DNA of 28,788 nt from a virus. This document shows, piece by piece, positions 5,457-28,600 of the stretch. The notes beneath the pieces are model-generated. The model was not told the DNA's origin, did not search any database, and was given only the letters and a program-made list of their open reading frames with translations. The stretch lies in IMG/VR virus record IMGVR_UViG_3300037584_001374, positions 1 to 28,788 of that record. One strand, given 5' to 3'. Numbering within the stretch: position 1 is the stretch's first letter; each line of letters opens with the position of its first letter. The position numbers and the translations under genes were made by a program.

Positions 5457-8400
5457 AACTTACCCTCACTTGTATAATACCCTAATACCTGACTTCCTGT
5501 ATTCTCAAACCCTACTTCCTCAGTGAAACCCACAAGGTCATCAAAGCCCATGTTTGAACTTTTAGCAGTACCCGTAATTGTATACTGAACCGATGTGGTC
5601 TTTAACGATATAGAATCCTTGAAGACCTTGCCTATCGAAACCTCTTGTGCATTTCTACTGAATATAGTAGAACTGCTGGAATTTTGCTGGCTTCCTATTT
5701 CCGACAACCTCTCTGCTATCGTCTTGTCGAACGTGCCTACCGTCATAGTGAGAGTCGGTGTTAATACGTTCTCTATCTCGAATATGACATAATCATCAGG
5801 TGGAATATCGTATTGAGGGAAGTCCAAGTAAATGATATCCCCTGCTTCAAGTGTCTCAAGACCCTTTTTCTCAACTGTTAGCACTATTTTTCTAGCATCT
5901 GATGAATGTAATTCTAACAACTCATTTGCCTTCACCTTCGCATCTGTGATAGTCCTGATATTTGCATCCACGAAATTAATGTGTATTCCGCTCTCATCGT
6001 TCGCCACACTCGTTCTTATTCTATCACCAATCACAGTCACTTTGTTAGCCTTAGCAAACAATGAACTATTCTTCTTCACAGAGAAGATTCTATGGTCTCT
6101 ATAGGAAATTCCCTGTTTTCTCAATAAGGCAGAAGAATTCAAGTCACGAAATACCACTTTTTTATTGTTAATACGAAAATCCAAGTTCTTCTTTCCTGCT
6201 AATTTGTTTAACGTATCGAAAGCAGAAGACTGTACGAAATTATCGGTAGAAACAAAAGTCTTCTTATTTCTCTTAATTATCTCATCATTGACAAGAGGAA
6301 CGAACCATAAATCTACATCAGGGTCATCATCATCTACATCATTAACAGTGATTGTAGTTCCACTAGGAGTGGAAGCAACAACACCGATTGGGTATCCTTC
6401 ATGTGTGAATATGACATCTCCTGCTACAATATTCTCTACTGTGGCCTTGCAAGTAATGACATTATTGGAGACTGAACTCACGATGTTTCCAGTGAACTCT
6501 GCTTGAGACTGCACCATGTCAATATCGAGACCCGCCTCCTTGACTATACGCTCAATCTCCGTCTCCACCTCTTCACCGATAATCATGCTAGTTCCGATAT
6601 GGCACTTCGTCATGTTATCCAAATTCGGTTTTCTAGATAACTCCAAGTCTATTACTTCACCGAATGAAACTATGCCGTTCCCAGTTAACGTTCCTTCAAA
6701 GGTTAGTCTAGCCTCTCGTTGCCTAACTCCGGTGTGCAATGCTGGTGAAACATCTGTAAACGTGATTGTTTTTCTTTGTCTATTAGTGCCATCTGTGATG
6801 AAACAATCGAAAACATCACCATTCGAGAATGGTAGGTTATGCACAGAATTACTAGGATTTTCAGGTACTATCGACTCTATGCTTGTTGTTTCGGGTGCTT
6901 TGTCCAAATTCATGAGAACATAAGCACTGAATACCCCTTCGGCTAGATGTGAGGTTGAGTTTCCTGACTGGTTGCCCGTATCGTATCTAGAGGTTGTCTC
7001 ACTATAATCCAAACCAGTCGAATGCAATCTGTTCAATATTATCTCCCTCGGCGTATCTCTAAATGTTGTCTCTGCCAACTTCATTAATCTGAATCGTGGT
7101 ATCCTTGCTCGTTGTGAATTTCCTAAAAATACGTCACTGTCTTCTATGCTCCTATCCAATTTTATCACATGGGTAAAAGAATCATCATCCAAAGATGACT
7201 GGTCTGTAGTATGACTTAGAATCTTAGCGATGAACCCGATGTTCCCTCCGCCTCCTGACTCGAATATTTGACCTCTATGGAATGTAGTCCCACCCAACAC
7301 GGCTTGACCGAGAGTTAAATCATGTTTCAGTTCAAGCGTCTTTTCAGAAACAAGGTAGTAGCCTGTTAGATTCGGCACAAACGAAAGCCAAGTGTGCTGT
7401 GAATCAAAATCACTAATATCAATGGTAATCGTATCCCTCGCACTATTAGTTTGGCTAAGAGTTATATTACCATCATTTATGTCTAATACTGGCTTTATCA
7501 TCATCTGCGCTCTGTATAGTCCACCACCATCATTAGAGGTGAAATCCGCATCATCATGCAAGTCATATTCTGTGGTTGTCAAGGTGTTTCCTTCATTAGA
7601 CTCTAGGAAGTATGATACGCCTAAATCCGTAAAAGCCCCTTCACCGCTGTTCGCTGTATCGTCAAGACGCCCTGACCTAGTATGTGTTCCTGCTATTGCA
7701 TATGTGTTTGGGTTATTTTGGAATATCATTGTATTCACAGTATGTTGGTCAAGGTCATTTGCACTGTTATTGGTACCCCCATTGAAGCCACTCGTATAAG
7801 CAAGATAGTTGCTTTTCTGTTGTCTGCTTCCTAGTATCGCACTGGTTTGAAACATATCAGACGGTACACTTGGCCCGCCTCCGCTAACTTGCCTTATATT
7901 CCTAAACACCGCGATACAGTTCTCGTAGGGATGAGAATCAGTGAATAATCCATATTTCTCTGCTCGTTGTGTATTTCCGCCTGAATGACTTCGTTGTACT
8001 AGACCTGCAATCACCCTCGAACTGTTGATAAATTTATGACTCCCAGTGCTTAACCCAGTGTCGTTGTGCCATGTGTATTCAGGATGATAGGGACTCAAAT
8101 CTGATACTTTTGGGTCTGTGCTGTGTGTTGATGACTTGAACACTAGGGGGATGAAGACGTTAGGTGGCAGAAAATCACCTCCATTGCTGAGTTTAGCGAA
8201 CTTGAATATACCACTGTCTGAGTGATAGTTTGGTCTCGCTAAATAGACACTTGTGAAATCTATCTTTGTCTGTGATGCAGCAAGAGTGTCAGAGGTTATC
8301 AGTGGCGATTGAAATCCTCCATCTTCAAACTTGAATACCTCAAAGGACAACTTTGAGTATTGTCTGATTATGTAAGCAGGGGTGTTTAACGCAGTGGGGT

Positions 8401-11400
8401 CTCCTGTCATATTTATCAAGTTAGATTGATTAGCACCACTACTCATATTAGTAATAGTTGCCTTGGCAATAAGAACCAACTCTCCTGTGTCTGCCCTGAA
8501 GACAGCATCTCCCTGTTCTAGCGATAGAGTGCCGCCACCTGTGAAAGTCAAAGTGTTATTGCCACTGCCATCCCTAACGACTGCTAAACCGGCAGGTACT
8601 TCTCTTAACCTATACATCTGATATCTCTCGATGTCCAGTAGTGCATCAGCAGGAGAGGGTAGTGAATCAGGGTCAACGGGGTTGAAGTGCCAATCGAAAG
8701 TTGCTTCTACCAACCTAGCAATACCGAATCTCTTTATGTTGTTTGTAGTTGTACTAGCAGATTTTATCGATACTCTCTCATAGTTCGTGTCTGTCTTCTC
8801 AATCATTTTTGTCGTTCCACTGTAAGAAGAATGAGAAACAGATGTTGCAGAGTTTTTTCCATCGCTCTCTAACAGACATGCTAAGTCTTCAAAGTTAAGT
8901 GTCTGACTTCCGATGTTATTGTATCTTAATTTTGAATAAGGAAACAAATCTCCCGTTGCAAATATCTCATAGTTCTGCGCTTTAGGCGCGTAATTCAGCA
9001 ATTTGTCTATGTCAGGCACTCTTGAGTTCAACAGACTACCAACAGAAGTAATCGCATGATTCGGCGGTATCAGGTTCTCGTATCCAGTGCCTGCTGACTG
9101 AAATGGACTGCCAACTGTATTCTTCAGTGTGTAATTAGAGTCATTCATGTTGCTTCCCAACACAGGAGCAGTAGAAGCAGATAGAGTAGGCGAATCAGGT
9201 GCAATCCCATTTGCCTTTATCGGATAAGCGATTGAATATGCAGATATTGCCTGTGGTTGAGTTGAACTTCCATATATTCCAGCATCGGACTTAGTGACTG
9301 TTCCTGCTTGCAGTATTTGAGTATCCCAATATCTGTATGTCTCTTTAGGTGTATAGAAGGTGTTTTGCTGGTTTCCCTTTCCCCCTATTTGTGGGTCTAT
9401 TCTATGTATGAAACCACCAGTGTTTACATTGTTGTTCACCATGTAGAATGAATATCCGGTTCTAGTGTCACTGGTGTTGTTCTCTAGTCTAGCCATAACC
9501 AAAGGACAAATCGGTGCGATTGACATCTTGAATCCACCATCATCCTTTGAGATAGTCTCTACAATATCAAACATCTCAGAAGCATATGTCATCTTGTTAA
9601 TCTTGGTTGTTGATACCCCTGTCTCCCTTGACAACTGCACTGCAAAAGCGGAGTCTGCATTCAGTGTGCTGGTGTTCAATGAGTTGATGCTTATCGGGCT
9701 GGCGATGTCATACCCCAGTGTCCTGTCTTCAGCGAATGAAGCGGTATTGGAAGTTGATTCCAACTTGGTTCTAGTTCCGGTTCTATCGAATGAGAACGAG
9801 TCAGAGAACACCAAGCCCTTGTCGCTGACTCTTGAGAAGTCAGTAACAGAGTTGGCTATAGATGGATTACTGCCAATCGCCTTCTTACCTGAGAGGTATG
9901 TTGCTTCAGTGTGAGGGTCATAATAGTAGATATCAGTATTCGCAGTAGTGGATAGTGTAACTAAAGGCTCATGCGTGAGAGTTGTAAAAGATGTTTGTGC
10001 CGATGCTACCTCTCCAATGAAAATCATATTTTCTGCTTCAGTGGTACTCCTAGTAAACAACAGGGTTCTTGCTTTGGCAGTCGTATTCCAATTACTTATT
10101 GTAGCATGAATAATTTCCTTACCATTCACACTGCTTACATCCATAGTTGCCTCATTCAATGCTGGTACAATAGGATTCAATGTGCTGTATACTATGTCCT
10201 CAGAGAAAGACAGATTCTTGTCTATCAGTGTATTCAACAAAGAAGCATTGGTGTCTCTTCCCTCAATCACCAATGTTGACAGTCCGTTTTCAGCAGAAGT
10301 CTCGCTCAACTCAACTGTGCCATCAAAGACCTCTTCCTGTAAATTGTATGCGTCTGTGTAATAGTAGAAACGCTGTATGTTCGTATTTTGATAGAACTTC
10401 CTACTTGCGTCTTGAAATTTGACATACTCCATGTCCTTGTCAATGTAATCCACATGATTCTGATGAGTGCTTATGTTGGAGAATACCACCTTAGTATCAT
10501 AGAACTTAGATTCCTCTTTAGGGATGGTTGTGCCTGATACGGTCAATCTGTTTCCATCTGCATAGACTACCTGAGTATCGGAATCGAAGTTCTCTGTGTT
10601 TAGAACTCCTGTCCAAGCAGCAATCTCGACATTCTCATTCTGAAAGTGATGAACCGTTGGAGTAACAGTGAATGTCGTTGCCTTGAGAGTCTTATTCGCT
10701 TTCACTGTGACATCTTGCGTACCTGAAGATTTACTCTGTACTGCATTGACCACGTAGTAGTGGTCGCCTACCTTGATGATGGAATTGGATGTGAGTTTGC
10801 CGGACAAAGCATAATCATGGGAATCTAGCATGTCTGTGAATCGAATCTCATTTGCACCATCTACCTTGGATGCTTTGAATGGTAATTTCTTGAATGACAT
10901 CTTATCGCTAAAAGTCGTCTTCATTGCTTTGAGTATCTGACCCTCTCGTATTTTGTGTGACATCAATCCTGAGTTGTTTAGTAACTTAGTCTTGAATATC
11001 TTAGTCATTTTGTTCTGAGGGTTATTGACAATCAAATCAGTAGTAAATGGAATAACATCATTCCTACGAGGTCTTGGGTCGAATGTTATGTACCTTGAAG
11101 GGCCAGTGCGATTGCCATCTAGAGTCGCTGATGTCGCCGTTGTGCTATCTGAAGCATGTCTCTTCATGTTTGGAAATGCCTTATGCCATAGAATCGGATT
11201 GAAATTGCTATCGAAATCATCAGTCGTCCTTAGATTATCCACAAGCGTTGCATCTAGTTTACTCCTACCGATACTGGTTATTGTTCCTTTCAACTTCGCT
11301 TCCGTTCTGAATACTATATTCTGTATTCCTTTTCCATATGTTAAACCGAAGGTAGAAGTACCGCTTCTCCATGCAGTCGATGCTTGCCTAGCGAAATCCA

Positions 11401-12496
11401 ACTCAATAGAGTTATCACTAGTGTTGATTGTTTTTACATTACCAACAAAACTATCATCTGAGTCATTGAACAACGACATGCCTTGGAATACTATATTCAT
11501 AAAATTAGGATAACTGCTTGTATTCACAAATAGTTTCTTCGATGAACTGCCCTCTTCAAACGCTGAATAAGCAGCACTACTGCTTGTGAAAGCAACAGAT
11601 TTACCACTATCCCCTGTACCTAATGCAATATTATAGTCATACCATCTCAATCTAGTGACGGTGTATTTCTCCATGTAGTCCAATTGGTCATCCTGCTCCA
11701 ACCTGTCATTGTAGAAGTAGAACGTTGGTCTATCGACCCTGTTTAGCACATCATAGTTGTCCGTTGAAGCCTGATTGTCACCACGAAGACCATAACTCAC
11801 AGCCATGACCTCAGTATCTGTCTTTGCTGGCCCTTTGAATACCTCAAAGTTAGTTCCCTTTGGTATAGAAGTAGGATACTTAGGACTGAACTCCAAGCCA
11901 TCCCCAAACTCATCGAACGTAGATATTCTAGTTATCTTGGCAAAGTGCGGTCTTGCAGTATCAGTCTGTGTCGATGAATCGTATATCTCAGGATTCAACA
12001 TAATGAAGTAATCATATCTCTCTATGTCCAATGCTATAACATCAGTAGCAGGATAGTCAATGACAGCAACACCCAATGAGGTATCTGCATATACAAACTT
12101 TCTATTTGTCTCTCCTGTGCTAATACTGGTATCAAATGCCTTTATCTTGAAGGGAGGCGTTGTTTCCTTAGTCGTAGCATAGTTAGCGATTGTCTTATTC
12201 TTAGGAAGAAGCCTATTTCCTATTTGGTCAGCCTTGTCATTTGATATAGAGCCACCATGAGACCCCTTTCTAATCTCGGTGAATATAACAGATGGAACCA
12301 CATCAGATGTAGCAGTTCCAGTTCCGCTAGTCTCGGACTCCACATATGTCGCTTTCAATACAGGATTGACCGATACATCCCTGAATGCCTTTCCTGTAGT
12401 AAACTCAGTAACCATACCTGCATAGGCTTCATCGGCAAGGGATTCATTGACTCCTGATTTCAGAGGGTAGAGGATAGTCCCATTTGTCTTCGCCAT
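5453..12496 (-). CDS. Giant tail hub / tail-tip protein, about 2347 aa
   Basis: This is by far the largest gene in the window. Two segments look like parts of a gp27/late-control-D type hub. One is near residues 735-770, with LVIEGRDTNASLLNTLIDKN. The other is near 2090-2120, with FDTLNKLAGKKNLDFRINNK followed by KVVFRD, and then regular beta strands to about 2260. The roughly 1300 residues between them, and the region before the first segment, are beta-rich with many Asn, Ser and Thr. They contain several small modules with a G-x-I...G-x-V...TITV pattern, for example about 2000-2065, which includes an aspartate run DVDDDDPDVD. The neighbours are tape measure, distal tail and lectin proteins before it and the fibre after it, which matches a Tal/gpJ-like central tip. 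GGTGA lies six bases before the ATG at 12496. ATG 12499 and TTG 12502 are alternatives. The hub call is inferred from motifs and synteny. Confidence 0.75.
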   Translation of the reverse strand: MAKTNGTILYPLKSGVNESLADEAYAGMVTEFTTGKAFRDVSVNPVLKATYVESETSGTGTATSDVVPSVIFTEIRKGSHGGSISNDKADQIGNRLLPKNKTIANYATTKETTPPFKIKAFDTSISTGETNRKFVYADTSLGVAVIDYPATDVIALDIERYDYFIMLNPEIYDSSTQTDTARPHFAKITRISTFDEFGDGLEFSPKYPTSIPKGTNFEVFKGPAKTDTEVMAVSYGLRGDNQASTDNYDVLNRVDRPTFYFYNDRLEQDDQLDYMEKYTVTRLRWYDYNIALGTGDSGKSVAFTSSSAAYSAFEEGSSSKKLFVNTSSYPNFMNIVFQGMSLFNDSDDSFVGNVKTINTSDNSIELDFARQASTAWRSGTSTFGLTYGKGIQNIVFRTEAKLKGTITSIGRSKLDATLVDNLRTTDDFDSNFNPILWHKAFPNMKRHASDSTTATSATLDGNRTGPSRYITFDPRPRRNDVIPFTTDLIVNNPQNKMTKIFKTKLLNNSGLMSHKIREGQILKAMKTTFSDKMSFKKLPFKASKVDGANEIRFTDMLDSHDYALSGKLTSNSIIKVGDHYYVVNAVQSKSSGTQDVTVKANKTLKATTFTVTPTVHHFQNENVEIAAWTGVLNTENFDSDTQVVYADGNRLTVSGTTIPKEESKFYDTKVVFSNISTHQNHVDYIDKDMEYVKFQDASRKFYQNTNIQRFYYYTDAYNLQEEVFDGTVELSETSAENGLSTLVIEGRDTNASLLNTLIDKNLSFSEDIVYSTLNPIVPALNEATMDVSSVNGKEIIHATISNWNTTAKARTLLFTRSTTEAENMIFIGEVASAQTSFTTLTHEPLVTLSTTANTDIYYYDPHTEATYLSGKKAIGSNPSIANSVTDFSRVSDKGLVFSDSFSFDRTGTRTKLESTSNTASFAEDRTLGYDIASPISINSLNTSTLNADSAFAVQLSRETGVSTTKINKMTYASEMFDIVETISKDDGGFKMSIAPICPLVMARLENNTSDTRTGYSFYMVNNNVNTGGFIHRIDPQIGGKGNQQNTFYTPKETYRYWDTQILQAGTVTKSDAGIYGSSTQPQAISAYSIAYPIKANGIAPDSPTLSASTAPVLGSNMNDSNYTLKNTVGSPFQSAGTGYENLIPPNHAITSVGSLLNSRVPDIDKLLNYAPKAQNYEIFATGDLFPYSKLRYNNIGSQTLNFEDLACLLESDGKNSATSVSHSSYSGTTKMIEKTDTNYERVSIKSASTTTNNIKRFGIARLVEATFDWHFNPVDPDSLPSPADALLDIERYQMYRLREVPAGLAVVRDGSGNNTLTFTGGGTLSLEQGDAVFRADTGELVLIAKATITNMSSGANQSNLINMTGDPTALNTPAYIIRQYSKLSFEVFKFEDGGFQSPLITSDTLAASQTKIDFTSVYLARPNYHSDSGIFKFAKLSNGGDFLPPNVFIPLVFKSSTHSTDPKVSDLSPYHPEYTWHNDTGLSTGSHKFINSSRVIAGLVQRSHSGGNTQRAEKYGLFTDSHPYENCIAVFRNIRQVSGGGPSVPSDMFQTSAILGSRQQKSNYLAYTSGFNGGTNNSANDLDQHTVNTMIFQNNPNTYAIAGTHTRSGRLDDTANSGEGAFTDLGVSYFLESNEGNTLTTTEYDLHDDADFTSNDGGGLYRAQMMIKPVLDINDGNITLSQTNSARDTITIDISDFDSQHTWLSFVPNLTGYYLVSEKTLELKHDLTLGQAVLGGTTFHRGQIFESGGGGNIGFIAKILSHTTDQSSLDDDSFTHVIKLDRSIEDSDVFLGNSQRARIPRFRLMKLAETTFRDTPREIILNRLHSTGLDYSETTSRYDTGNQSGNSTSHLAEGVFSAYVLMNLDKAPETTSIESIVPENPSNSVHNLPFSNGDVFDCFITDGTNRQRKTITFTDVSPALHTGVRQREARLTFEGTLTGNGIVSFGEVIDLELSRKPNLDNMTKCHIGTSMIIGEEVETEIERIVKEAGLDIDMVQSQAEFTGNIVSSVSNNVITCKATVENIVAGDVIFTHEGYPIGVVASTPSGTTITVNDVDDDDPDVDLWFVPLVNDEIIKRNKKTFVSTDNFVQSSAFDTLNKLAGKKNLDFRINNKKVVFRDLNSSALLRKQGISYRDHRIFSVKKNSSLFAKANKVTVIGDRIRTSVANDESGIHINFVDANIRTITDAKVKANELLELHSSDARKIVLTVEKKGLETLEAGDIIYLDFPQYDIPPDDYVIFEIENVLTPTLTMTVGTFDKTIAERLSEIGSQQNSSSSTIFSRNAQEVSIGKVFKDSISLKTTSVQYTITGTAKSSNMGFDDLVGFTEEVGFENTGSQVLGYYTSEGKL

Positions 12497-12498
12497 CA

Positions 12499-13554
12499 TC
12501 AATCACCAAAAGAATAGTAGAAGAGAATATCATTGTAACTAGGAGTAAGCGTGGAGATGCTAGCACATGGAGTTGACGACTTATGAAATGCAATCTCGTA
12601 GAGTTCACCCATGAATTGTGTCGCCTTTCTATTCGGGTTATTTCCGTCCTGTCCTATGAAGCAATCACCCGGACTCGTATCCAATCTGAACTTACCGATG
12701 TTAACCTTCACTCTCTTTACTGGTTGATTATTCAGATACAGAGTAATGGTATTGCTATCGAAGGACACTCCTACTTTATTGGTCTGCTCTAGATACAATG
12801 CCTCTCTTTGCTGGTCTCTGTATATAGTGGATGTTACTGCCGTTGCCGGAGTATCCGATAATGTGATGGTATTTCCTGAGACAGATGCAACGGTTCCTAT
12901 CAATACTCCACTGTTGTTGTATATTTGATTACCAGCACCTATGTCATCGGCTTCACCTGAACCAACTGTTATGTTATTTCCTGAGCCACTTGCACTAGTG
13001 GTCACGTTTGTTTTGTCTGTTGATATCCCATTGTATAGCCCTTCAGGGTCATAGTAGCCTACAAGATTCTTCTGAGAGATGAATACTGGTTCACTTGCAA
13101 CAGTATGTGTTATCGGCGTACTAAGAGAATCGGTCAATTCTACCACTATCTTGTATTCTGCTGGTTGGTTGAAGTTCGATGATGTTGTATTCTGCAAGTA
13201 GAATTTTAGATAGTCATTGCAGAATATCATCATCTTATGCGTGTTTCTTCCAGCACCGAAATAGGACACGCTCTCATAATTGGAAGTTGTATCTGCATGG
13301 TCATCCAAAGACAGGTTCGGGCTTGGTGGCGTCTTCGTGCTATCTAGCCGTCCTTGGCCTGAGTCTCTATGGCCCACTCCGTTTACATCATAGGGAGTCA
13401 GTATCGCCTCTATTGAGAACGGCCCACCACAGTCCCACAACTTATGCTTTGAGTCATTCGTGTTGTAGTCATCATACTCTATTTTCAGATGTCCATCGCA
13501 CATTACGGGAAAAATCAATGCTCTTGATTCTCCTATGTGCGCTGTTGTTGCCAT
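12499..13554 (-). CDS. LamG/concanavalin A-like lectin tail protein, 351 aa
   Basis: Probable carbohydrate-binding virion protein. The N-terminal part has the GPFSIEAILTPYD pattern (residues 44-56) seen at the start of laminin-G-like jelly rolls. The C-terminal part (about 260-325) has a strand VGVSFDSNTITLYLNNQ, then FIGQDGN, then MGELYEIAFHKS, the usual closing strands of that fold. Residues about 183-246 look like a separate small beta module (GNQIYNNSGVLIGTVASV then GNTITLSD) inserted into the lectin. The gene lies between the probable distal tail protein and the hub, so the product is likely displayed at the tail tip to bind host surface glycans. AGGTGA lies four bases before the ATG. 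The stop overlaps the hub start region. Confidence 0.8.
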   Translation of the reverse strand: MATTAHIGESRALIFPVMCDGHLKIEYDDYNTNDSKHKLWDCGGPFSIEAILTPYDVNGVGHRDSGQGRLDSTKTPPSPNLSLDDHADTTSNYESVSYFGAGRNTHKMMIFCNDYLKFYLQNTTSSNFNQPAEYKIVVELTDSLSTPITHTVASEPVFISQKNLVGYYDPEGLYNGISTDKTNVTTSASGSGNNITVGSGEADDIGAGNQIYNNSGVLIGTVASVSGNTITLSDTPATAVTSTIYRDQQREALYLEQTNKVGVSFDSNTITLYLNNQPVKRVKVNIGKFRLDTSPGDCFIGQDGNNPNRKATQFMGELYEIAFHKSSTPCASISTLTPSYNDILFYYSFGD

Positions 13555-16312: not shown

Positions 16313-16881
16313 TCACTTCTTAGTTCCTTCTTTCATCGCCTCCGATTCCAGTCTCTTTATCTCTCCATGTATTTCCAACATTTCCTTCACTACGGATACT
16401 GGTGTATCATAAGCCTCCAAAGGGTTGATGGAGAAAGTAGTGCAGTAGGTGTATAGCATAATCTTCATTGCCACCTCACTGCTCACACTTCCACCTTTCA
16501 GACCTCTTCGGATTAGTTTTCGTTTCCCGTATCATCCCCCATGACATCCACGAATGGATTAGGGAGGATTTCCTTCAATTGCGCTCCGATATACGGGTTG
16601 AGTCTGATTAAGTCGGTAGTAGACAGTTGAGGCTCAGTCTTCTCTACGAAGTTCTCAACCATGTATCTATACATCTTGTTTAGATTGATGCCCATAGTTT
16701 GACCCTGAGCATCCATGTCCATAACAGACGACAACGCCTGTTCTACCTGTAGCCAAGTCGGTTCCTTAATCCAAACTTGGAGGTATTCATCAGAGTCAGG
16801 GGCTACCCTAATCTGATGGCATTCGGTTGCTGCTCTTGCGAACAGCATGTTCTTATCACTTACAATTTTTCTTTCTGTCAT
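16313..16881 (-). CDS. Tail assembly chaperone, -1 frameshift fusion (gpGT-like), about 189 aa
   Basis: Ribosomes reading the 122-residue chaperone meet the heptamer GGGAAAC in the correct phase (G GGA AAC) just before its stop. A -1 slip gives residues 1-120 plus 69 more (RKLIRRGLKGGSVSSEVAMK onward), ending at a TGA at 16313-16315, directly before the tape-measure start. The added segment is helical and contains AMKIMLYTYCTTFSINPLEA, and it ends with a charged helix and KEGTKK. Size, place and slippery sequence match the lambda G/GT arrangement, in which the fusion recruits tail-tube subunits to the tape measure. The 69-codon extension has no ATG near its beginning, so expression by frameshift is the simplest reading. 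The frame was read by hand from the sequence. Confidence 0.8.
16513..16881 (-). CDS. Tail assembly chaperone, short form (gpG-like), 122 aa
   Basis: A small acidic, mostly helical protein between tail tube and tape measure, the standard place for the lambda gpG-type chaperone. It contains VWIKEPTWLQVEQALSSVMD and ends NPFVDVMGDDTGNEN. The ATG at 16881 (MTERKIVSD) is chosen over a GTG at 16893 because the AGGTGG that forms the ribosome site overlaps that GTG and lies eight bases before the ATG. It acts in the cytoplasm during tail assembly and is not expected in the virion. The last codons carry the GGGAAAC slip site that produces the longer fusion. Confidence 0.82.
   Translation of the reverse strand: MTERKIVSDKNMLFARAATECHQIRVAPDSDEYLQVWIKEPTWLQVEQALSSVMDMDAQGQTMGINLNKMYRYMVENFVEKTEPQLSTTDLIRLNPYIGAQLKEILPNPFVDVMGDDTGNEN
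16522..16528 (-). promoter_or_regulatory. -1 ribosomal frameshift site GGGAAAC
   Basis: Read on the minus strand, the heptamer is G GGA AAC in the chaperone frame, an X XXY YYZ site differing only in the last base from lambda's GGGAAAG. A run GGGGGAT lies about 6-12 bases upstream and could act as a Shine-Dalgarno-like stimulator. I see no clear downstream pseudoknot. The zero-frame stop follows two codons later. Confidence 0.82.
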
Positions 16882-16904
16882 TTTTCTTTCCACCTAACTA
16901 ATAT

Positions 16905-19259: not shown

Positions 19260-20339
19260 TCACTGTATGAAATGAATAATGTCTCTCTTTCCCTTCAGTA
19301 TGGCATTCGCTTCTTCAAGAAGGATGTCATGCTTTGTCTTCAAGTCTATGTTAGAGCCTGTCTCAGCAATGAGTATAGAGTTGTCATCGTGTCGTATCAC
19401 CTCTGCTGCAACTAGTTTGGTGGCAGCATCCTGTATTGTAGCAGGAACCCTAGATTCCCCACTAACATACGTCACTCGAATTGAGTGAGAGTGTAGGTAT
19501 GGATAGTTCTTCAAGAAGAATATCTTACCGTCTTTGTTGATTGTCCAATAGTCTCCTAGTCTTCTTTGGTCTTGGTTATCTGTGAATTGAGTTACCGTTC
19601 CGACAGTTGAGGTTATCGTACATGCGGAGCCGTCATCACCCATCAACAGAGATGAGATAACAACAGTATCCCCTGCCTCGCTGTCTGTTGTAGCATAGAA
19701 GAAATCAGATATATTCACACCAACCGCTCCTTCAGCAGTTACAGTCTTCGCAACAGTTTCACCAGTGAACTTAGCAGTCTTGTGTGGAAATACCTCGTTG
19801 ATTGCATCTGCTATCTGACTAGCAGTTGTCTTTGGGCCGTAGTTGTCAAAGAAGTCAGTTGCTTTATCGAGATGGAATGTATATGCCCCGACTCCTAATG
19901 CTATTCTCCAATTACCGCTCTCAGGGCCGCTTGGAACCTTTATCTTCGCAGTTGCGGATGCCAAGTCCACATACTCATTTCCTTGCCATACTTCCAATCT
20001 AACAATCTTCTGAACATTGTTTCTATCTAATTGAACGAAGCCGATGTAATCCTTGTATCTGTTAACAGGATAAGCACCCATCTGAAACGCCTCGAAACCA
20101 TGAAATTCATGGTGATAGATAACAGGTCGATATGAGTGTCCTACAATGTCATCCACTCTTTCCTCTGCTCTCTTGATTAGGTTGCCTACTTCACCGATGG
20201 TCGGTGTAGTAGTGGTAGCAGTGAAAGGTGATATTTGCAATAACTGGGACACATCAGTATGTGTTGTATAGAATCCTCTACCATCTGCATAATTTGGGTT
20301 AATGTTAGTAAAGTCACTTGGGGAGGATAGTTTTGGCAT
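19260..20339 (-). CDS. Head-tail adaptor (gp6/gp15-like connector), 359 aa
   Basis: The ends of this protein fit the helical adaptor that forms a ring under the portal. Near residues 50-70 is LIKRAEERVDDIVGHSYRP, and near the C-terminus is VPATIQDAATKLVAAEVIRH, followed by a last long helix. These two segments are the usual core helices of the HK97 gp6/SPP1 gp15 family. That family is commonly 100-150 residues; here about 200 residues of beta-rich sequence lie between the helices, including a module near 190-258 (GDTVVISSLLMGDDGSACTI). The gene precedes the tail terminator and tube, as expected. CAGGAG lies eight bases before the ATG. Confidence 0.75.
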   Translation of the reverse strand: MPKLSSPSDFTNINPNYADGRGFYTTHTDVSQLLQISPFTATTTTPTIGEVGNLIKRAEERVDDIVGHSYRPVIYHHEFHGFEAFQMGAYPVNRYKDYIGFVQLDRNNVQKIVRLEVWQGNEYVDLASATAKIKVPSGPESGNWRIALGVGAYTFHLDKATDFFDNYGPKTTASQIADAINEVFPHKTAKFTGETVAKTVTAEGAVGVNISDFFYATTDSEAGDTVVISSLLMGDDGSACTITSTVGTVTQFTDNQDQRRLGDYWTINKDGKIFFLKNYPYLHSHSIRVTYVSGESRVPATIQDAATKLVAAEVIRHDDNSILIAETGSNIDLKTKHDILLEEANAILKGKRDIIHFIQ

Positions 20340-21956: not shown

Positions 21957-22646
21957 CTATGCTAACCACTTTGCCCATGCAACGCCCTTTGTAATGGCCG
22001 CTCCTAAACCAAGACCACTTTGAGGTGGAGTGTAAGAGGGCTGTCCAGTAGCGGGGTCAATCCAATATGGGTTATTGTTCATGTCATAGCCAGCAGGTGG
22101 AACAGGATATCCAGTGCCATTGTTCATTGCCATTTGTTGTTGCATCATTGCGTTGTTCATACCCATACCCATGTTGCCTCCTTGTATGTTGGCAGGATTC
22201 ATTTGCGGCGACCCCATACCTTGCATAGCATCAGCAGAAGGTGATGCGAATCCTTGTGATTCTAGATACTGCTGCTTCGCCATTCTTCGCTGCATTATTA
22301 CTTCCGAGTTGACCGCAGTTGCTAGCAGGTTTACAATATCCAAGTCGATATTCTCTTGAGTGATTGATGTGAATTCACTGAGGGAATCAGGATGTATCTC
22401 CAAGTCACCTTGAGTGTTGGAAACGAACTTCATCTTAACGAGCATCTGACTGACAACTCTAGTCATGACATCTTCCATCATCTTCTCAAACGCAGACAGG
22501 AATGGCTCTCCATGATATTGAAAGAACTCTTCCACATGATTTTCCTGTAGTGTGAGTAGGTTGTTAACAGACTTGAAATTCTGCTGTCCCATCTGATTCA
22601 TTTGCGAGGCAAGAGCAGTATTGCTTGTTCCGAAGACTCCCATCAT
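21957..22646 (-). CDS. Met/Asn/Gln-rich protein, 229 aa
   Basis: Not a family I recognise. The first half is helical (SVNNLLTLQENHVEEFFQYH, then FEKMMEDVMTRVVSQMLVKM). Residues about 140-200 are low complexity, dominated by Met, Asn, Gln, Gly and Pro (QGGNMGMGMNNAMMQQQMAM), then PPAGYDMNNNPYWIDPATGQ. The last 18 residues (LGLGAAITKGVAWAKWLA) form a hydrophobic, possibly membrane-active helix. The start overlaps the preceding stop (ATGA), with AAGGTG four bases before it. A flexible internal or ejected virion protein would fit the composition, but this is inference. Confidence 0.78.
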   Translation of the reverse strand: MMGVFGTSNTALASQMNQMGQQNFKSVNNLLTLQENHVEEFFQYHGEPFLSAFEKMMEDVMTRVVSQMLVKMKFVSNTQGDLEIHPDSLSEFTSITQENIDLDIVNLLATAVNSEVIMQRRMAKQQYLESQGFASPSADAMQGMGSPQMNPANIQGGNMGMGMNNAMMQQQMAMNNGTGYPVPPAGYDMNNNPYWIDPATGQPSYTPPQSGLGLGAAITKGVAWAKWLA

Positions 22647-23329
22647 TCAGCACCTTCCTGTGTAGTTACCTTAACGCCTTCGGTCAATAAAGATTTTATC
22701 CTCTCAGACATGGCCGCATTCTCAATCATCATAGCATACAATTGCTCTTCCTTAGAAGATGCTTCGTTAGTAGGAGGGGTAATCTTCCATCCTAGAGATG
22801 ATAGTGAGTTGATGTCTTCTTGCTTCAATCTTGTTATTGGCCCTGATTTCACTAAGTTAACTGGGTTCAGGCTCTTAGCAGATGGAATGTATGCGCTGAA
22901 TGAAAGTCCGTGTTCTTGTGCCAGTATCTGCTGCTCTAGCATCTCATACTGCATGTGAATTGCTGCATGTTTCTCACAGTAAGTACCTCTCATTGGGTAT
23001 CCCTTGCGAACCTTGTGCAGTGGAAGAGGTGGTCTTCTAGCATCATCTGCTGTCCAAAATTTCTGTGTACCGCAAATCACACACCTGTCTTTGTAGTTGT
23101 ACTTGAAACTATACGGTATCTTGAGAAATGTTTTCTTCTCAGGTTTCAATACCTTCACTATTTCTTTCAGTTGCTTTTTTGGTTTTAATGATTTGAACTC
23201 GTATGCCATAATCGGCCCTGCGGCTCTTGCAGTAGTTAGTCTATCCATGAAAGGATTGACACTATTTGTGTTAACTGTGGCATTCGTAGCACCAATCAAA
23301 CTTGGGGGATTAAATTGTTGCATTGTCAT
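22643..23329 (-). CDS. Zinc-binding protein with CxxC...CxxH, 228 aa
   Basis: A single likely metal site is formed by Cys83 and Cys86 (RCVICGTQ) and Cys118 with His121 (TYCEKH), with His125 nearby. A proline-rich loop (RRPPLPLHKVRKG) lies between the pairs. A basic region (SLKPKKQLKEIVKVLKPEKK, residues 47-66) precedes the site, and a charged helical region rich in Glu follows. The spacing CxxC-31-CxxH resembles small treble-clef or HNH-like folds, but I see no HNH nuclease catalytic set. It could bind nucleic acid or serve as a structural protein. It follows the GTPase gene, with AAAGGAG eight bases before the ATG and a small hairpin between the two genes. Confidence 0.78.
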   Translation of the reverse strand: MTMQQFNPPSLIGATNATVNTNSVNPFMDRLTTARAAGPIMAYEFKSLKPKKQLKEIVKVLKPEKKTFLKIPYSFKYNYKDRCVICGTQKFWTADDARRPPLPLHKVRKGYPMRGTYCEKHAAIHMQYEMLEQQILAQEHGLSFSAYIPSAKSLNPVNLVKSGPITRLKQEDINSLSSLGWKITPPTNEASSKEEQLYAMMIENAAMSERIKSLLTEGVKVTTQEGAE

Positions 23330-23393: not shown

Positions 23394-24065
23394 CTAATAG
23401 TCTTTTATCATTGTTAAGATTCCCCGATACACCATCTCAGAATCTGACTTGGCACTGACAATGTATTTGTGACAAGGTATTCCAGTTTCATTCAGTTTCT
23501 GAAGACCGGGCTTGAATGACTCAAATATCGGGTGATTCTCAATTTTACCATCGTGTGGATACTTGTCTTTCCATAAGTCATACTTGTTAGCCCAAAGACC
23601 GACAGCCAACGGGTAATCATGTTCTTGCTTCTTTTTCTTCCTGCCACCGATAGTCCAATATTGATTGCAGATGGTATCAACGAGAAAAGTCCAAGATAAC
23701 TGTTGCTCGATGTCATAGTGTTTGTCTAAGTGTCTGTCATCAAAGAGGAATACGATATACTTCACATGTCTTCCTCTCATGTCTCTAACCCATTCTTCCC
23801 AGTAAACCGTCTGACCTCCTATGTCAGCAGTCTTTACGGTATGTGCATCTCCATCTAATTTAACGAATTTACGAGTAGCCCTGTGTCTGCCAACAGTTCT
23901 TTTCTGAATATCGGGAACCTCCCCTCTAGTCATCAACTGTCGATGCAATGTCGTCTTACCTGCTTTACTTGCACCATAGATACCGAAATTGATAGAATGA
24001 AGACGATTATACAGTTTGTTCATGGCTTCTACAATGAGTATTGCAAAACCCGCCATCACCGACAC
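23394..24065 (-). CDS. Arf/Ras-like small GTPase, 223 aa
   Basis: A complete P-loop GTPase. G1 is GASKAGKT (residues 31-38). A switch-I threonine is at about 57 (KRTVG). G3 is DIGGQ (81-85), the Arf/Rag/SR-beta form rather than the Ras DTAGQ. G4 is NKYD (160-163) and G5 is SAK (204-206). Strand VKYIVFLFDD follows G3 as in Arf proteins. Residues 4-20 (MAGFAILIVEAMNKLYN) could form an amphipathic helix like the Arf N-terminus. A basic insertion GGRKKKK (140-146) precedes G4. The start is a GTG at 24065 with AGGTGA four bases upstream; GTG 24059 and ATG 24056 are possible. It follows two membrane-protein genes within the structural operon. GTP binding is well supported. The cellular role and partners are unknown. 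Confidence 0.93.
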   Translation of the reverse strand: MSVMAGFAILIVEAMNKLYNRLHSINFGIYGASKAGKTTLHRQLMTRGEVPDIQKRTVGRHRATRKFVKLDGDAHTVKTADIGGQTVYWEEWVRDMRGRHVKYIVFLFDDRHLDKHYDIEQQLSWTFLVDTICNQYWTIGGRKKKKQEHDYPLAVGLWANKYDLWKDKYPHDGKIENHPIFESFKPGLQKLNETGIPCHKYIVSAKSDSEMVYRGILTMIKDY

Positions 24066-24119: not shown

Positions 24120-24341
24120 TCAATGACCGCCCCAAAGGGAACTAAGAAGATGCCATCCACCTGAAAATAGATTCACACCGAACACTGCTACTGCATGTCC
24201 TAGAAAGAAACAAGCAACGGACGATATTGTTCCCCAAAGCCAAAATCTCGCTCTTAGAAACCAAACGTCAGCAGAGTGCGCTCTTTGTAAGTCATATGCG
24301 AGTGTGGTCTCATCCATCCCGAATAGGATTTCGCTTACCAT
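24120..24341 (-). CDS. Small membrane protein, 73 aa
   Basis: An acidic N-terminus (ILFGMDETTLAYDLQ) is followed by a hydrophobic region, WFLRARFWLWGTISSVACFF then LGHAVAVFGVNLF, enough for one membrane helix and perhaps a second short one. It ends in a Trp/Gly/His-rich tail. It starts five bases after an AGTGA that overlaps the stop of the upstream membrane-protein gene. With that gene and the GTPase it forms a three-gene membrane-related group. I do not recognise the family. A holin-like role is possible from size alone but is not supported by any motif. Confidence 0.75.
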   Translation of the reverse strand: MVSEILFGMDETTLAYDLQRAHSADVWFLRARFWLWGTISSVACFFLGHAVAVFGVNLFSGGWHLLSSLWGGH

Positions 24342-24346
24342 TCAAA

Positions 24347-24772
24347 TCACTCTTGGAATCCAGTTAAGAACGTAGGACTAACAGTAGTGGGTTCTTTGTT
24401 CTGTATAGGCAAGTTAGGCATAACACTGTCACCATAAGGTGCGTTGGTTATACCAAACTGCTGCTGGAAGTTTCTTAGTGACTCCCTGACCCTCTTCCTG
24501 TTGTCTTCCTCTCTTGCCTTTCTGTCCCAATAGTTGTTTATTTGACGCTGTAGTAGGAAGTCCTCGATGTAGTCATTCAACATCAAGTCGAATAATGCTT
24601 TCATTATCATTATTCCACCGACAGTCAAAACACCAAATAGAACGGCATGAATGTACGTGCCGAATAATAGCATGTCTGCTACTGAAGCGTAGAAGTAAAC
24701 GTTGACACCACTTACTGCTCCAACGAACAAGATGGTCATTATGAGTTTTGTATCTGTATCTATGCTTGGCAT
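24347..24772 (-). CDS. Two-helix membrane protein with a charged coiled-coil tail, 141 aa
   Basis: Two hydrophobic helices lie at residues about 10-38 (IMTILFVGAVSGVNVYFYAS) and 41-66 (YIHAVLFGVLTVGGIMIMKA). A strongly charged helix follows (DRKAREEDNRKRVRESLRNF), then a Pro/Thr-rich tail. A longer frame starting at 24838 exists, but GAGGTGATT six bases before ATG 24772 marks the real start, and the longer form would overlap the upstream gene. The arrangement suggests a membrane anchor with a cytoplasmic or virion-interior helix that could recruit a partner. The GTPase two genes downstream is an obvious candidate, but that is inference. Confidence 0.8.
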   Translation of the reverse strand: MPSIDTDTKLIMTILFVGAVSGVNVYFYASVADMLLFGTYIHAVLFGVLTVGGIMIMKALFDLMLNDYIEDFLLQRQINNYWDRKAREEDNRKRVRESLRNFQQQFGITNAPYGDSVMPNLPIQNKEPTTVSPTFLTGFQE

Positions 24773-24775
24773 ATG

Positions 24776-24785
24776 AATCACCTCA
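24776..24785 (-). promoter_or_regulatory. Stop codon fused to Shine-Dalgarno, TGAGGTGATT (second copy)
   Basis: The stop of the 98-residue gene forms the start of the ribosome binding site for the two-helix membrane protein. Fourteen bases, including the preceding Ala codon, are identical to the capsid junction. This site decides the start at 24772. Confidence 0.7.
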
Positions 24786-25079
24786 AGCAAAGTTGACCGA
24801 ACAGGTTCCAGTTCCTGTAATCTGAACGTATATTCCATTCGCTACAAGAACACCGTGTAGGTCTTGCTCGATGGTCTGAGCGGTTCCTCCGGCGTGTAGA
24901 ACTATTCGGGCAACCTCTTTCTTGCCTGATGTGGTTGAATTGTCGCTGTCCCATATCTTGACAGTCATCAGAGCGTTTGCCGTTGAAGTGACATGAACGC
25001 TCATTATCTTAGCATGGTGCTTTATTGCTACTGTGCTAGTAGAAAGTACGCCTGTGGAGTTGCATGTTGGGGATGACAT
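24783..25079 (-). CDS. Small beta-rich head-region protein, 98 aa
   Basis: The sequence alternates hydrophobic and polar residues (SVHVTSTANALMTVKIWDSD) and ends in ANGIYVQITGTGTCSVNFA, the pattern of a small beta sandwich. Two cysteines are present (about residues 6 and 93). It shares a TAATG overlap with the SAP-domain gene before it. Small beta-sandwich proteins coded just after the capsid gene are often capsid decoration or head-fibre proteins, so that role is likely but not shown. Confidence 0.75.
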   Translation of the reverse strand: MSSPTCNSTGVLSTSTVAIKHHAKIMSVHVTSTANALMTVKIWDSDNSTTSGKKEVARIVLHAGGTAQTIEQDLHGVLVANGIYVQITGTGTCSVNFA

Positions 25080-25991: not shown

Positions 25992-26001
25992 AATCACCTC
26001 A
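25992..26001 (-). promoter_or_regulatory. Stop codon fused to Shine-Dalgarno, TGAGGTGATT (capsid to decoration)
   Basis: The capsid stop TGA is the first part of a strong ribosome binding site for the TTG start of the next gene. The same ten bases recur at 24776-24785. There the next gene starts at an ATG. Confidence 0.7.
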
Positions 26002-27372
26002 AGCACTCTTGATGTTGGTTATCTTTCCTTGTCCCTTGAAGAACGAACATCCGGTCTCAGCCATAGTTCGGTACATTCCTTGGTTTCCAAGTTTGCCAAC
26101 ACCGAATGGGTTTCCGCTAGTGATACCATCCTCGAAGTATTGAGTAGGCTTCATCACCGATAGCCACAGATGGTCTGTGTCTAGCAGAAGTATGTCACTC
26201 AGTTCATTGGTTGTGTTACCACCAGTAGATGGCATGTCCTTGGTTGGGATGATTGGGATGTCGTAGTATGTTGCAACTCTGAATCCAACCTCTGCACCCT
26301 TGACACCACGAACTCCGTTGTGGCTAGGCACGATTTCCTTCCTGTCCATGAATCTCTCTTGGCTCTGTAGAAGGTCAGCGAGGTGCTGAACCGTGTCGTA
26401 GCCAGTCAACATGACCTTCGGGTTTCCGCCGTTCTGCCTGATTCTCCTAATCATGTCGTTAAGCATGGTCAGGGTTAGAACCCTAGCATCGCCAGCAGCA
26501 TATCCTGCACCGAAGTCAACCTCTGCATCCAAGAAGGAAGCAGTTCCAGTTGCAGCGTTGCTTGATACGCCAACAGTTCGGGAAGTTCCGAATAGCCTTA
26601 CAACCTCACCGATTACAGCGGAGTTGTCTCCGTTGTTAGCACCAGTGGTCAATAGGTTTGCGTTGTACATAGCAGCAATCTCGGCAGCAGACGAAACAAT
26701 CTTCATGAGAGATGTGTAGTTTCTCTCGATGTCCGTTAGGTTTGCACCATCATACAACTCAAGAGGCATGACTAGCATCTTGCTCTGTACTTCAGCGTGT
26801 AGTTTACCCATGTCCTCACGAACGATTGCACGAATGTCACCAACACCGTCATCGATTGCAGCAAGTTCCATACCAAGTTCAGAGAACTCGAATAGATGAG
26901 CCACAGTCTTTGGACTGACGTATAGTTTCTCATACTGAGGTGCAATTGGTGGGATATCGTTTCCAGTTCCTAGAGTTGCGTTCTCACCAACACCACCAAT
27001 CTTGTCTGCTCTTACTGAGTCTGCACCTTCAACACCTGAACCATTCGGGTCAACGGAAAATGCAGAACCTGAGCCACCTTGCGCTCTGTTCTTCAGGACT
27101 CGCCATCCACTGGATGTGTATGGCCTCTTTGCTAGCATAGCAAGAGGGTTAACCTCTTGGTTAAGCATCGACCAAACTTTCTGTCCGTAGAGAACGTTGT
27201 ATAGGTCTCCCAATCCACTAGCAGCACCCGAAAACGGGTTGCTTGCTGCATCGTGTGGCGTTCCGAAACCACCAACGACACCAGCAGCCTTTAGCAGAGC
27301 GTTGCCCTGTGCGCCAGCGTAGCCGTAAGTGGCTGCTTCTAAGTCTTTTACAGTGTTAATATATCCAGTCAT
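25999..27372 (-). CDS. Major capsid protein, HK97 fold, 457 aa
   Basis: Forms the icosahedral head. The position (after protease/scaffold, before small decoration genes), length and pattern fit an HK97-fold capsid protein. The N-terminal region is Ala/Gly-rich and helical. A segment DLYNVLYGQKVWSMLNQEVN is the long-helix/E-loop region. The end has DIPIIPTKDMPS, DILLLDTDHLWLSVMKPTQY and GMYRTMAETGCSFF, typical of the beta sheet and closing strands of this family. A longer frame to 27498 would overlap the protease. ATG 27372 has AAGGTGG six bases before it and directly follows the protease stop. No long N-terminal delta domain is visible, consistent with a scaffold supplied by the upstream gene. 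Confidence 0.92.
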   Translation of the reverse strand: MTGYINTVKDLEAATYGYAGAQGNALLKAAGVVGGFGTPHDAASNPFSGAASGLGDLYNVLYGQKVWSMLNQEVNPLAMLAKRPYTSSGWRVLKNRAQGGSGSAFSVDPNGSGVEGADSVRADKIGGVGENATLGTGNDIPPIAPQYEKLYVSPKTVAHLFEFSELGMELAAIDDGVGDIRAIVREDMGKLHAEVQSKMLVMPLELYDGANLTDIERNYTSLMKIVSSAAEIAAMYNANLLTTGANNGDNSAVIGEVVRLFGTSRTVGVSSNAATGTASFLDAEVDFGAGYAAGDARVLTLTMLNDMIRRIRQNGGNPKVMLTGYDTVQHLADLLQSQERFMDRKEIVPSHNGVRGVKGAEVGFRVATYYDIPIIPTKDMPSTGGNTTNELSDILLLDTDHLWLSVMKPTQYFEDGITSGNPFGVGKLGNQGMYRTMAETGCSFFKGQGKITNIKSA

Positions 27373-27373
27373 T

Positions 27374-28063
27374 TTATTCCACCTTCCTTGCGAGGTTGTG
27401 TATGTCTCCCCATGACATCTCAGCCATTGCACCAGCAGTGGTTGGGAATCCTTCGGGTAGGGAGAAAGCAACTTCTCTTGCTTTCCTAATCTCATCATCC
27501 TTTGCAGTTAGAGACTTGCGTAGTTCTGCAAACTCTTCTTTGAGAGCCGCTACTTCTGTTGAAGCATCGTACTCTGCTCGCTCTGCGGCTGATTTCTTAA
27601 CTTCGAGTTCAGCAGCGAATCTGTCAGCGAATGTCTTCGATAGATTATCGTAGGCCATTGCCTCTAGTTGCTCTGCCCTGAAAGCCTCGTAAGCCTTCTC
27701 TACGTTCTCAACACTCAAGTCGAGAGTGGTAAAGTCAGAGCCTTCTAGACCTTTAGAGACTGATAGAGCAGCAGGAGCAGCCTTTGGCTTTCCGCCACTT
27801 ACTACTTCTTCACCAGCCTCGTAGTCCCTTGTTGAATCCTCATCAAGAGCCTTCATTTCATCGTCTTCGCCTGATTCGGATAGTTTACCCATCACGCTCA
27901 ACTTTTCCATGCTCTCAACATCGTCTTCTTCTTCTTTCATCGTTTCATCCATTGTTTCCATTTCTTCTTTCATTTCATCTTCCTTTGTAACACTAGTAAC
28001 ATCACGAACCTGCGTTAGCAGACCATTGAGTTCTTCCAGTGCTTTTTCTAGTTTTTCCGTCAT
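27374..28063 (-). CDS. Nested scaffold protein from an internal start, 229 aa
   Basis: Within the protease reading frame, ATG 28063 (MTEKLEKALEELNG) is preceded six bases upstream by AAAGGAGGT, the strongest Shine-Dalgarno in the window. The internal start lies right at the boundary between the protease domain and the scaffold domain. This matches the lambda C/Nu3 arrangement, in which a free scaffold is made in excess from inside the protease gene. The product would be an all-helical, acidic scaffold that is degraded or expelled before DNA packaging. Translation from this site is inferred from sequence and not proven. Confidence 0.75.
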   Translation of the reverse strand: MTEKLEKALEELNGLLTQVRDVTSVTKEDEMKEEMETMDETMKEEEDDVESMEKLSVMGKLSESGEDDEMKALDEDSTRDYEAGEEVVSGGKPKAAPAALSVSKGLEGSDFTTLDLSVENVEKAYEAFRAEQLEAMAYDNLSKTFADRFAAELEVKKSAAERAEYDASTEVAALKEEFAELRKSLTAKDDEIRKAREVAFSLPEGFPTTAGAMAEMSWGDIHNLARKVE

Positions 28064-28600
28064 TTCTTTACCTCCTTTCGCTTTCAAAATGTCGAATTTC
28101 GCTTCAGGGTTTATTCCTTTTTCACATATAGTAACTTCATGCAACTCCAAGTTGTCAATCTCGTTGTATTCCCCGTATTCCTCCGATTTTCTCTCTCTCT
28201 TTGATATCGCTTGACCACCGATGCTGAAGGAACGTAGTGTGCCTTTTCTGATTCCTCTGTTGATTTCCTTTGCCTTCTCTATGTCATCTCTCATTTTGAT
28301 AACTACATAGAATCCGACACCATCTACACCTGTCTTGTGTAATGTACCATTGGAATCACGGTATTGCTCTATCACCTCTCCTACCTGAACATTGGAATGA
28401 TTTGACATGACGTTTCGATAAGATTTCTCACTCATGAAATCTTTAACTGCCTTTTCGAGTGCATCTAGTGTTATCAAGTCATTTTGCTTGTCTACTATTT
28501 CGATGGATGCATATCCTCCGATTACTAGATTATCTGACTTGAGAATAGTGAAATCACTAGCACTCTCCTGTCTAATCAATACCTCCTGTTCAACTAACAC
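27374..28600 (-). CDS. Prohead protease with fused C-terminal scaffold region, 408 aa
   Basis: Residues 1-175 form a herpesvirus-assemblin-like prohead protease (S78/U35 group). His68 (SNHSN), Ser126 (RSFSIGGQ) and the acidic/His pair in LHEVTICEKGINPEAKF (154-155) correspond to the usual catalytic residues and to the EVSLV...NPEA motif. Residues 180-408 are charged, low in aromatics, and rich in Glu, Lys and coiled-coil heptads, as expected of a capsid scaffold (EMKEEMETMDETMKEEEDD). The protease would remove scaffold and mature the head. The start is a GTG with AGGTG six bases before it. The same stop ends a likely shorter scaffold product from an internal ATG. The capsid gene begins immediately after the stop. 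Confidence 0.9.
   Translation of the reverse strand: MLVEQEVLIRQESASDFTILKSDNLVIGGYASIEIVDKQNDLITLDALEKAVKDFMSEKSYRNVMSNHSNVQVGEVIEQYRDSNGTLHKTGVDGVGFYVVIKMRDDIEKAKEINRGIRKGTLRSFSIGGQAISKRERKSEEYGEYNEIDNLELHEVTICEKGINPEAKFDILKAKGGKEMTEKLEKALEELNGLLTQVRDVTSVTKEDEMKEEMETMDETMKEEEDDVESMEKLSVMGKLSESGEDDEMKALDEDSTRDYEAGEEVVSGGKPKAAPAALSVSKGLEGSDFTTLDLSVENVEKAYEAFRAEQLEAMAYDNLSKTFADRFAAELEVKKSAAERAEYDASTEVAALKEEFAELRKSLTAKDDEIRKAREVAFSLPEGFPTTAGAMAEMSWGDIHNLARKVE
28070..28078 (-). promoter_or_regulatory. Internal ribosome binding site AAAGGAGGT
   Basis: A near-perfect anti-16S match inside the protease frame, six bases before an in-frame ATG at the domain boundary. It encodes Lys-Gly-Gly in the fusion, so it is also neutral for the longer protein. 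Confidence 0.8.

What the first reader, a model, noticed from the sequence alone, without database searches (positions are those of the whole stretch)
23394..24065. Arf-like small GTPase encoded inside a viral structural operon
Seen: all five G motifs are intact (GASKAGKT, a switch-I Thr, DIGGQ, NKYD, SAK), with the Arf-type G3 and a hydrophobic N-terminal helix. Known: Arf/SR-beta/Rag GTPases control membrane recruitment and trafficking, and are characteristic of eukaryotes and some archaea. Small GTPases are not part of standard tailed-phage head or tail modules. Inferred: a virion-associated or assembly-time GTP switch, or a captured host gene acting on the host membrane. It sits between the capsid and connector genes, transcribed with them, so it is not a stray end-of-operon cargo gene.
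Basis: partly seen in the sequence, partly recalled or inferred. Interest (0 to 1): 0.87.

Follow-up and report, generated by a model that had tools for sequence, protein, structure and literature searches.

The report
Small GTPase core gene in magroviruses
Tailed viruses of abundant marine archaea carry, next to their capsid gene, an intact Ras-superfamily small GTPase (a GTP-powered on/off switch of the kind that runs membrane traffic in our own cells), which is as conserved as the capsid itself and sits beside two small membrane proteins, so these viruses probably use GTP to control a membrane step when building or releasing particles.

Summary
Window 23394-24065 (minus strand, GTG start, 223 aa) encodes a small GTPase with complete G1-G5 motifs, and a predicted structure of the window protein matches Rab/Ras folds. 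The window is a fragment of a magrovirus-like archaeal tailed virus. The gene is core: in loci collected by capsid gene alone, all 117 with enough sequence downstream carry it, same strand, 1.3-2.6 kb past the capsid gene. The order MCP>TM2>TM1>GTPase>Zn>w12 holds in all 292 loci that span it (179 distinct sequences). It is the most conserved protein measured in the module (median identity 70%, capsid 66%), with dN/dS about 0.01-0.05. 'Arf-like' is only partly right: DxGG and the +7 Trp are invariant, but the catalytic Gln is Glu in 78% of homologues and every Arf, Ras, Roc and SRPRB model scores below its cut-off. It is a separate, divergent small-GTPase family, with no counterpart found in 50,697 phage records, in PHROGs or in plasmids. 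Two small transmembrane proteins always lie immediately upstream. Best mechanism: a GTP-dependent membrane-recruitment switch in head/neck morphogenesis (confidence 0.4). Rivals: an ejected virion protein, or an egress/vesiculation factor like ArvA.

The parts
23394..24065 (-). Small GTPase, 223 aa: N-terminal hydrophobic/amphipathic helix (2-22), G1 31-39, Thr57, G3 81-85, polybasic loop about 141-147, G4 160-163, G5 204-206
24120..24341 (-). TM1 (w15): 73-aa protein with one predicted TM helix (41-59), immediately upstream of the GTPase in all 292 loci that span the module
24347..24838 (-). TM2 (w16): 163-aa protein with two predicted TM helices (32-50, 65-83) and a charged C-terminal tail; conserved next to TM1
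22643..23329 (-). Zn_w13: 228-aa conserved protein with a CxxC...CxxH motif, directly downstream of the GTPase
21957..22646 (-). w12: 229-aa conserved protein of unknown family; overlaps the end of w13 by 4 nt
25999..27498 (-). Major capsid protein (SU10_MCP/phrog_24667 type), related to Druskaviridae and methanogen-virus MCPs; first gene of the conserved order MCP>TM2>TM1>GTPase>Zn>w12
27374..28600 (-). Prohead protease (Peptidase_S78)
24783..25079 (-). w17: small conserved protein between MCP and TM2, resembling HVTV-1 gp123 by eye and by position (decoration-like, inferred)
19260..20339 (-). w10: connector/neck protein with similarity to the HVTV-1 region (gp125), downstream of the GTPase cassette

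Best explanation
This is a virus-encoded Ras-superfamily small GTPase, a separate divergent family and a core gene of magrovirus-like archaeal tailed viruses. Shown computationally: motifs, fold, near-invariance, fixed place in the head module, and two small membrane proteins immediately upstream. Inferred: the GTP-bound protein inserts its N-terminal helix and docks on the TM1/TM2 complex at the host cytoplasmic membrane, where it recruits or licenses head/neck assembly partners (w13, w12 or the capsid). GTP hydrolysis, using Gln or Glu at position 85, then releases it. In short, a GTP-dependent membrane-recruitment switch for virion morphogenesis.
For: Invariant nucleotide-binding and switch residues; window-protein model pLDDT 78 matching Rab/Ras, Foldseek probability 1.0, TM up to 0.70 by target length. 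Core status: 117/117 MCP-anchored loci with room carry it at 1.3-2.6 kb; identical order in 292/292 loci, 179 distinct module sequences. Most conserved protein measured in the module; dN/dS 0.01-0.05. Membrane link: TM1 and TM2 always adjacent and, apart from the tape measure, the only window proteins with predicted TM helices; hydrophobic first half and amphipathic second half of the N-terminal helix; polybasic loop. GTPase distances correlate at 0.84-0.85 with TM1, TM2 and w12, against 0.74 with MCP, although all these genes are linked.
Against: No biochemical or virion-proteome data. No recognisable GEF or GAP: no Roadblock/LC7 protein in 26 related records. Adjacency to TM proteins does not show interaction. 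The catalytic Gln is mostly Glu, so hydrolysis may be unusual. HVTV-1, a related tailed virus, has no detectable GTPase in its homologous region, so the step is not generally needed for this type of head. Low confidence in the P-loop and switch I in the model (segments 35-38 and 49-51 below pLDDT 50).
Confidence: 0.4

Rival explanations
1. Virion-packaged, ejected protein: the GTPase, with TM1/TM2 and w12, is built into the head and enters the host with the DNA, where it acts at the membrane during entry or takeover (comparable in logic to internal/ejection proteins of podophages).
For: Position in the head module between capsid and connector; conservation equal to the capsid; TM proteins encoded among head genes.
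Against: No signal for packaging is recognisable; no virion proteome of a magrovirus was available; a switch enzyme needs host GTP, which is available either way.
Confidence: 0.25
2. Egress/host-membrane remodelling factor: the GTPase drives vesicle-like membrane deformation or lysis timing through TM1/TM2, by analogy with the archaeal vesiculating GTPase ArvA.
For: ArvA shows that a small GTPase drives vesicle formation in Euryarchaeota, and it sits in an operon with partner genes (PMC10927574); the viral gene is adjacent to two small membrane proteins.
Against: Location in the head module rather than a late lysis position; host-directed genes are usually patchy and fast-evolving (general knowledge), whereas this one is universal in the sample and nearly frozen. 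No sequence test against ArvA itself was possible.
Confidence: 0.2
3. Not a classical switch: a nucleotide-bound structural or chaperone-like protein, or a packaging/assembly NTPase, that keeps the GTPase fold without regulated hydrolysis.
For: Catalytic position is Glu in 117 of 150 homologues; no GAP/GEF candidate.
Against: Thr57, the DxGG motif and all base-recognition motifs are invariant in 150 distinct proteins, the pattern expected of a working switch.
Confidence: 0.12

Closest known systems
Eukaryotic/archaeal Arf, SR-beta and G-alpha GTPases
   Same: DxGG at G3, Trp at +7 (W92 aligns with the ARL8 Trp), hydrophobic/amphipathic N-terminal helix, NKxD and SAK
   Different: Scores below the Pfam Arf and SRPRB cut-offs; Glu usually replaces Gln; no Trp before the G3 Asp (Ala80); no Gly2; polybasic insert before G4
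Rab/Ras GTPases, including those of giant eukaryotic viruses (Tupanvirus, Klosneuvirus, Marseillevirus relatives)
   Same: Best structural matches; single-domain viral small GTPase
   Different: DxGG rather than DTAGQ; no C-terminal prenylation tail; giant-virus versions come from viruses of eukaryotes, whereas this one is a fixed part of a tailed-virus head module
ArvA (OapA), archaeal vesiculating GTPase of Euryarchaeota
   Same: Euryarchaeal small GTPase in an operon with partner genes; membrane action shown for ArvA (PMC10927574)
Magrovirales (Aoguangviridae, Apasviridae) and Druskaviridae (HVTV-1)
   Same: Related MCP, protease and connector; relatives have PolB, RFC, TFB zinc ribbon and (clades 2/3) GroEL, as described for Aoguangviridae
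   Different: No GTPase is mentioned in the magrovirus papers held; HVTV-1 lacks the TM2-TM1-GTPase-Zn-w12 block

Membership tests
Small GTPase (Ras superfamily, TRAFAC) | G1 GxxxxGK[ST], switch-I Thr, G3 DxxG, G4 NKxD, G5 SAK | tested here: met
   Invariant in 150 distinct homologues
Small GTPase (Ras superfamily, TRAFAC) | Ras-like alpha/beta fold | tested here: met
   Model pLDDT 78; Rab/Ras matches, probability 1.0, E about 1e-7
Small GTPase (Ras superfamily, TRAFAC) | Curated profile score (NCBIfam small_GTP TIGR00231, cut-off 42.5 bits) | tested here: not met
   E 1e-5, 25.3 bits; 35 of 36 members match at E<=0.01: a divergent member. This is a score threshold, not a defining feature of the superfamily
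Arf family | Pfam PF00025 above cut-off (22.3 bits) | tested here: not met
   16.0 bits; 10 of 36 homologues match at E<=0.01
Arf family | DxGGQ | tested here: not met
   DxGG invariant, but Gln in only 33 of 150; Glu in 117. Met in the window protein itself
Arf family | Trp at +7 from the catalytic Gln | tested here: met
   W92 invariant, aligned with the ARL8 Trp
Arf family | N-terminal amphipathic helix | tested here: met
   Helix 2-22 in the model; hydrophobic first half, amphipathic second half
Arf family | Myristoylated Gly2 | tested here: not met
   Ser2 invariant in the A6 alignment
Rab/Ras family | DTAGQ G3 and C-terminal lipidation tail | tested here: not met
   DxGG[QE]; protein ends at ...IKDY with no Cys motif
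Rag/MglA type | Roadblock/LC7 partner encoded nearby | tested here: not met
   No PF03259 in 26 related records
ArvA | Sequence orthology and ArvB/ArvC partners | not tested
   No ArvA sequence could be fetched; neighbours match no Pfam family
Magrovirales | HK97-type MCP related to Druskaviridae, prohead protease | tested here: met
Magrovirales | Replisome with PolB in N- and C-terminal parts, clamp loader, TFB | tested here: met
   In relatives, not in the window itself, which is only the structural part: PolB in 12 of 13 records, N- and C-terminal parts as separate ORFs in the one listed in full; RFC, TFB zinc ribbon and ERCC4 nuclease in a 98-kb relative
Magrovirales | Host is Poseidoniales | not testable with these tools
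   No tRNA in the loci scanned; host inferred from papers

The most novel reading that the evidence does not exclude
A tailed virus lineage depends on a GTP-driven, membrane-bound switch complex (GTPase + TM1 + TM2) to assemble or mature its heads at the host membrane, a regulatory principle not known to me in any Caudoviricetes, with the viral family as an early-branching relative of the Arf/SR-beta/G-alpha GTPases.
Probability: 0.25. Interest if true: 0.93.

Novelty: new variant of a known kind. Interest (0 to 1): 0.8.

Why it matters
Small GTPases run membrane identity and traffic in eukaryotes; in the viral structure library searched here the convincing ones belong to giant viruses of eukaryotes. 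A small GTPase as a near-invariant core gene of abundant tailed archaeal viruses implies that a GTP-controlled, probably membrane-linked, step is built into their particle formation or delivery. It gives a defined five-gene cassette to test, a new outgroup for the Arf/Ras superfamily, and a possible viral link in the history of archaeal membrane GTPases.

Tried and rejected
Chance motif match: rejected. Phage P-loop family that is not a GTPase: PHROGs gave only a weak Sak4-like P-loop match (E 0.048, residues 16-43), rejected by the NKxD/SAK motifs and the fold. Stray cargo gene: rejected by 117/117 MCP-anchored synteny. Apparent absences in 15 PolB-bearing contigs: 14 also lack the MCP and one has the MCP at the contig end, so these look like fragments, not losses. 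MglA/Roadblock pair: none. First AF2 model, made with a homologue first and 17 sequences, was poor (pLDDT 64.5) and was superseded by the window model. An alignment-distance run with hmmsearch -A was unreliable and was redone. ICTV exemplar genomes OR863078, ON649702 and PP497039 are not in the collections; Philosof 2017 and Prabhu 2025 are not held, so an earlier annotation of this gene cannot be excluded.

Full report
Observation. The minus-strand ORF 24065..23394 (GTG, 223 aa) has complete small-GTPase motifs. The start is backed by a Shine-Dalgarno-like GAGGTGAT and by homologues starting at the same codon. Single-sequence family searches are weak: Roc 21.4, MMR_HSR1 18.9, Arf 16.0 bits, all under their cut-offs; NCBIfam small_GTP E 1e-5.

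Homologues. Scans of IMG/VR with three queries returned 101, 188 and 145 related stretches, partly overlapping. Among 150 distinct full-length proteins all nucleotide-binding residues and Thr57 are invariant; position 85 is Glu in 117 and Gln in 33; W89 and W92 are invariant. dN/dS against close relatives is 0.01-0.05 with dS near saturation.

Structure. An AlphaFold2 model of the window protein from a 36-sequence alignment has pLDDT 78.3 and pTM 0.78, and the small-GTPase element order with an extra N-terminal helix. Foldseek against PDB gives Rab/Ras structures first, E about 1e-7, probability 1.0, TM to 0.70 by target length. In the viral structure library, searched with the earlier homologue model, the convincing matches are Rab/Ras proteins of giant viruses. 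Sequence profiles do not single out one subfamily. The DxGG motif and the +7 Trp point to the Arf/SR-beta/G-alpha side, the fold ranking to Rab/Ras; I treat it as a family of its own.

Virus identity. The MCP matches haloarchaeal Druskaviridae and methanogen-virus MCPs. Related 84-103 kb records encode PolB (12 of 13), with N- and C-terminal parts as separate ORFs in the one fully listed. A 98-kb near relative encodes RFC, a TFB zinc ribbon, an ERCC4 nuclease and a ribonucleotide reductase. Clades 2 and 3 carry GroEL-type chaperonin. This fits ICTV descriptions of Aoguangviridae/Magrovirales; the window's own clade lacks a chaperonin in 12 of 12 records. The Poseidoniales host is taken from the literature, not tested.

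Core status and synteny. To avoid circularity I collected loci by MCP: of 147, 117 carry the GTPase on the same strand 1288-2598 nt downstream (median 1749), and the other 30 end within 2.5 kb. The order MCP>TM2>TM1>GTPase>Zn_w13>w12 holds in 292 of 292 loci spanning it, 179 distinct sequences; some loci come from the same contig, which is why the distinct count is given. Median pairwise identity over 155 loci: GTPase 0.70, MCP 0.66, w12 0.60, TM2 0.55, Zn 0.52, TM1 0.50, w17 0.38. PolB-bearing contigs without the GTPase are explained as fragments. The sample covers at least three clades but not demonstrably every published magrovirus group.

Contrast. HVTV-1 shares protease, MCP and connector, but profiles of the GTPase, TM1, TM2, w13 and w12 find nothing in its homologous region. 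No match in INPHARED for the GTPase, a clade-3 homologue or an ARL8 fragment; no Arf/Ras family in PHROGs, only a transposition ATPase matched a KRAS fragment weakly; none in plasmids. The papers held do not mention a magrovirus GTPase; key ones are not held.

Mechanism. TM1 and TM2 are, with the tape measure, the only window proteins with predicted TM helices, and they lie immediately upstream. The GTPase has a hydrophobic-then-amphipathic N-terminal helix and a polybasic loop. I therefore favour a GTP-dependent membrane-recruitment switch in head/neck morphogenesis (0.4), over an ejected virion protein (0.25), an egress/vesiculation factor (0.2; ArvA precedent), or a non-switch role (0.12). 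Everything beyond motifs, fold, order and conservation is inference.

Noticed in passing
window 16313-16893 (-): The tail assembly chaperone ORF (16513-16893) is followed by an open -1 frame (16531-16313) entered at a slippery G-GGA-AAC near 16528-16522: probable programmed -1 frameshift, as in the HVTV-1 gp129/gp130 arrangement.
   Followed up: partly
window 19260-20339 (-): The connector protein (359 aa) appears by eye to carry an insert of roughly 130 aa relative to HVTV-1 gp125.
   Followed up: no
L093, L094 (NZMJ01000101, NZMJ01000024): Two magrovirus-like contigs are binned in a 'Maricaulis sp. IN14' MAG in GTDB: virus contamination of a bacterial bin.
   Followed up: partly
L124 / G029 (184,733 bp): One IMG/VR record holds two GTPase genes about 92 kb apart and two chaperonins: two genomes joined or a concatemeric assembly.
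   Followed up: no
window 5453-12502 (-): A 2349-aa protein with no PHROGs match; a 2376-aa ORF with a similar start is present in the 98-kb relative (L476).
   Followed up: no
records G030-G042 and G029 against G001-G012: A GroEL-type chaperonin gene is present in all 14 clade-2/3 records searched and in none of 12 records of the window's clade.
   Followed up: partly
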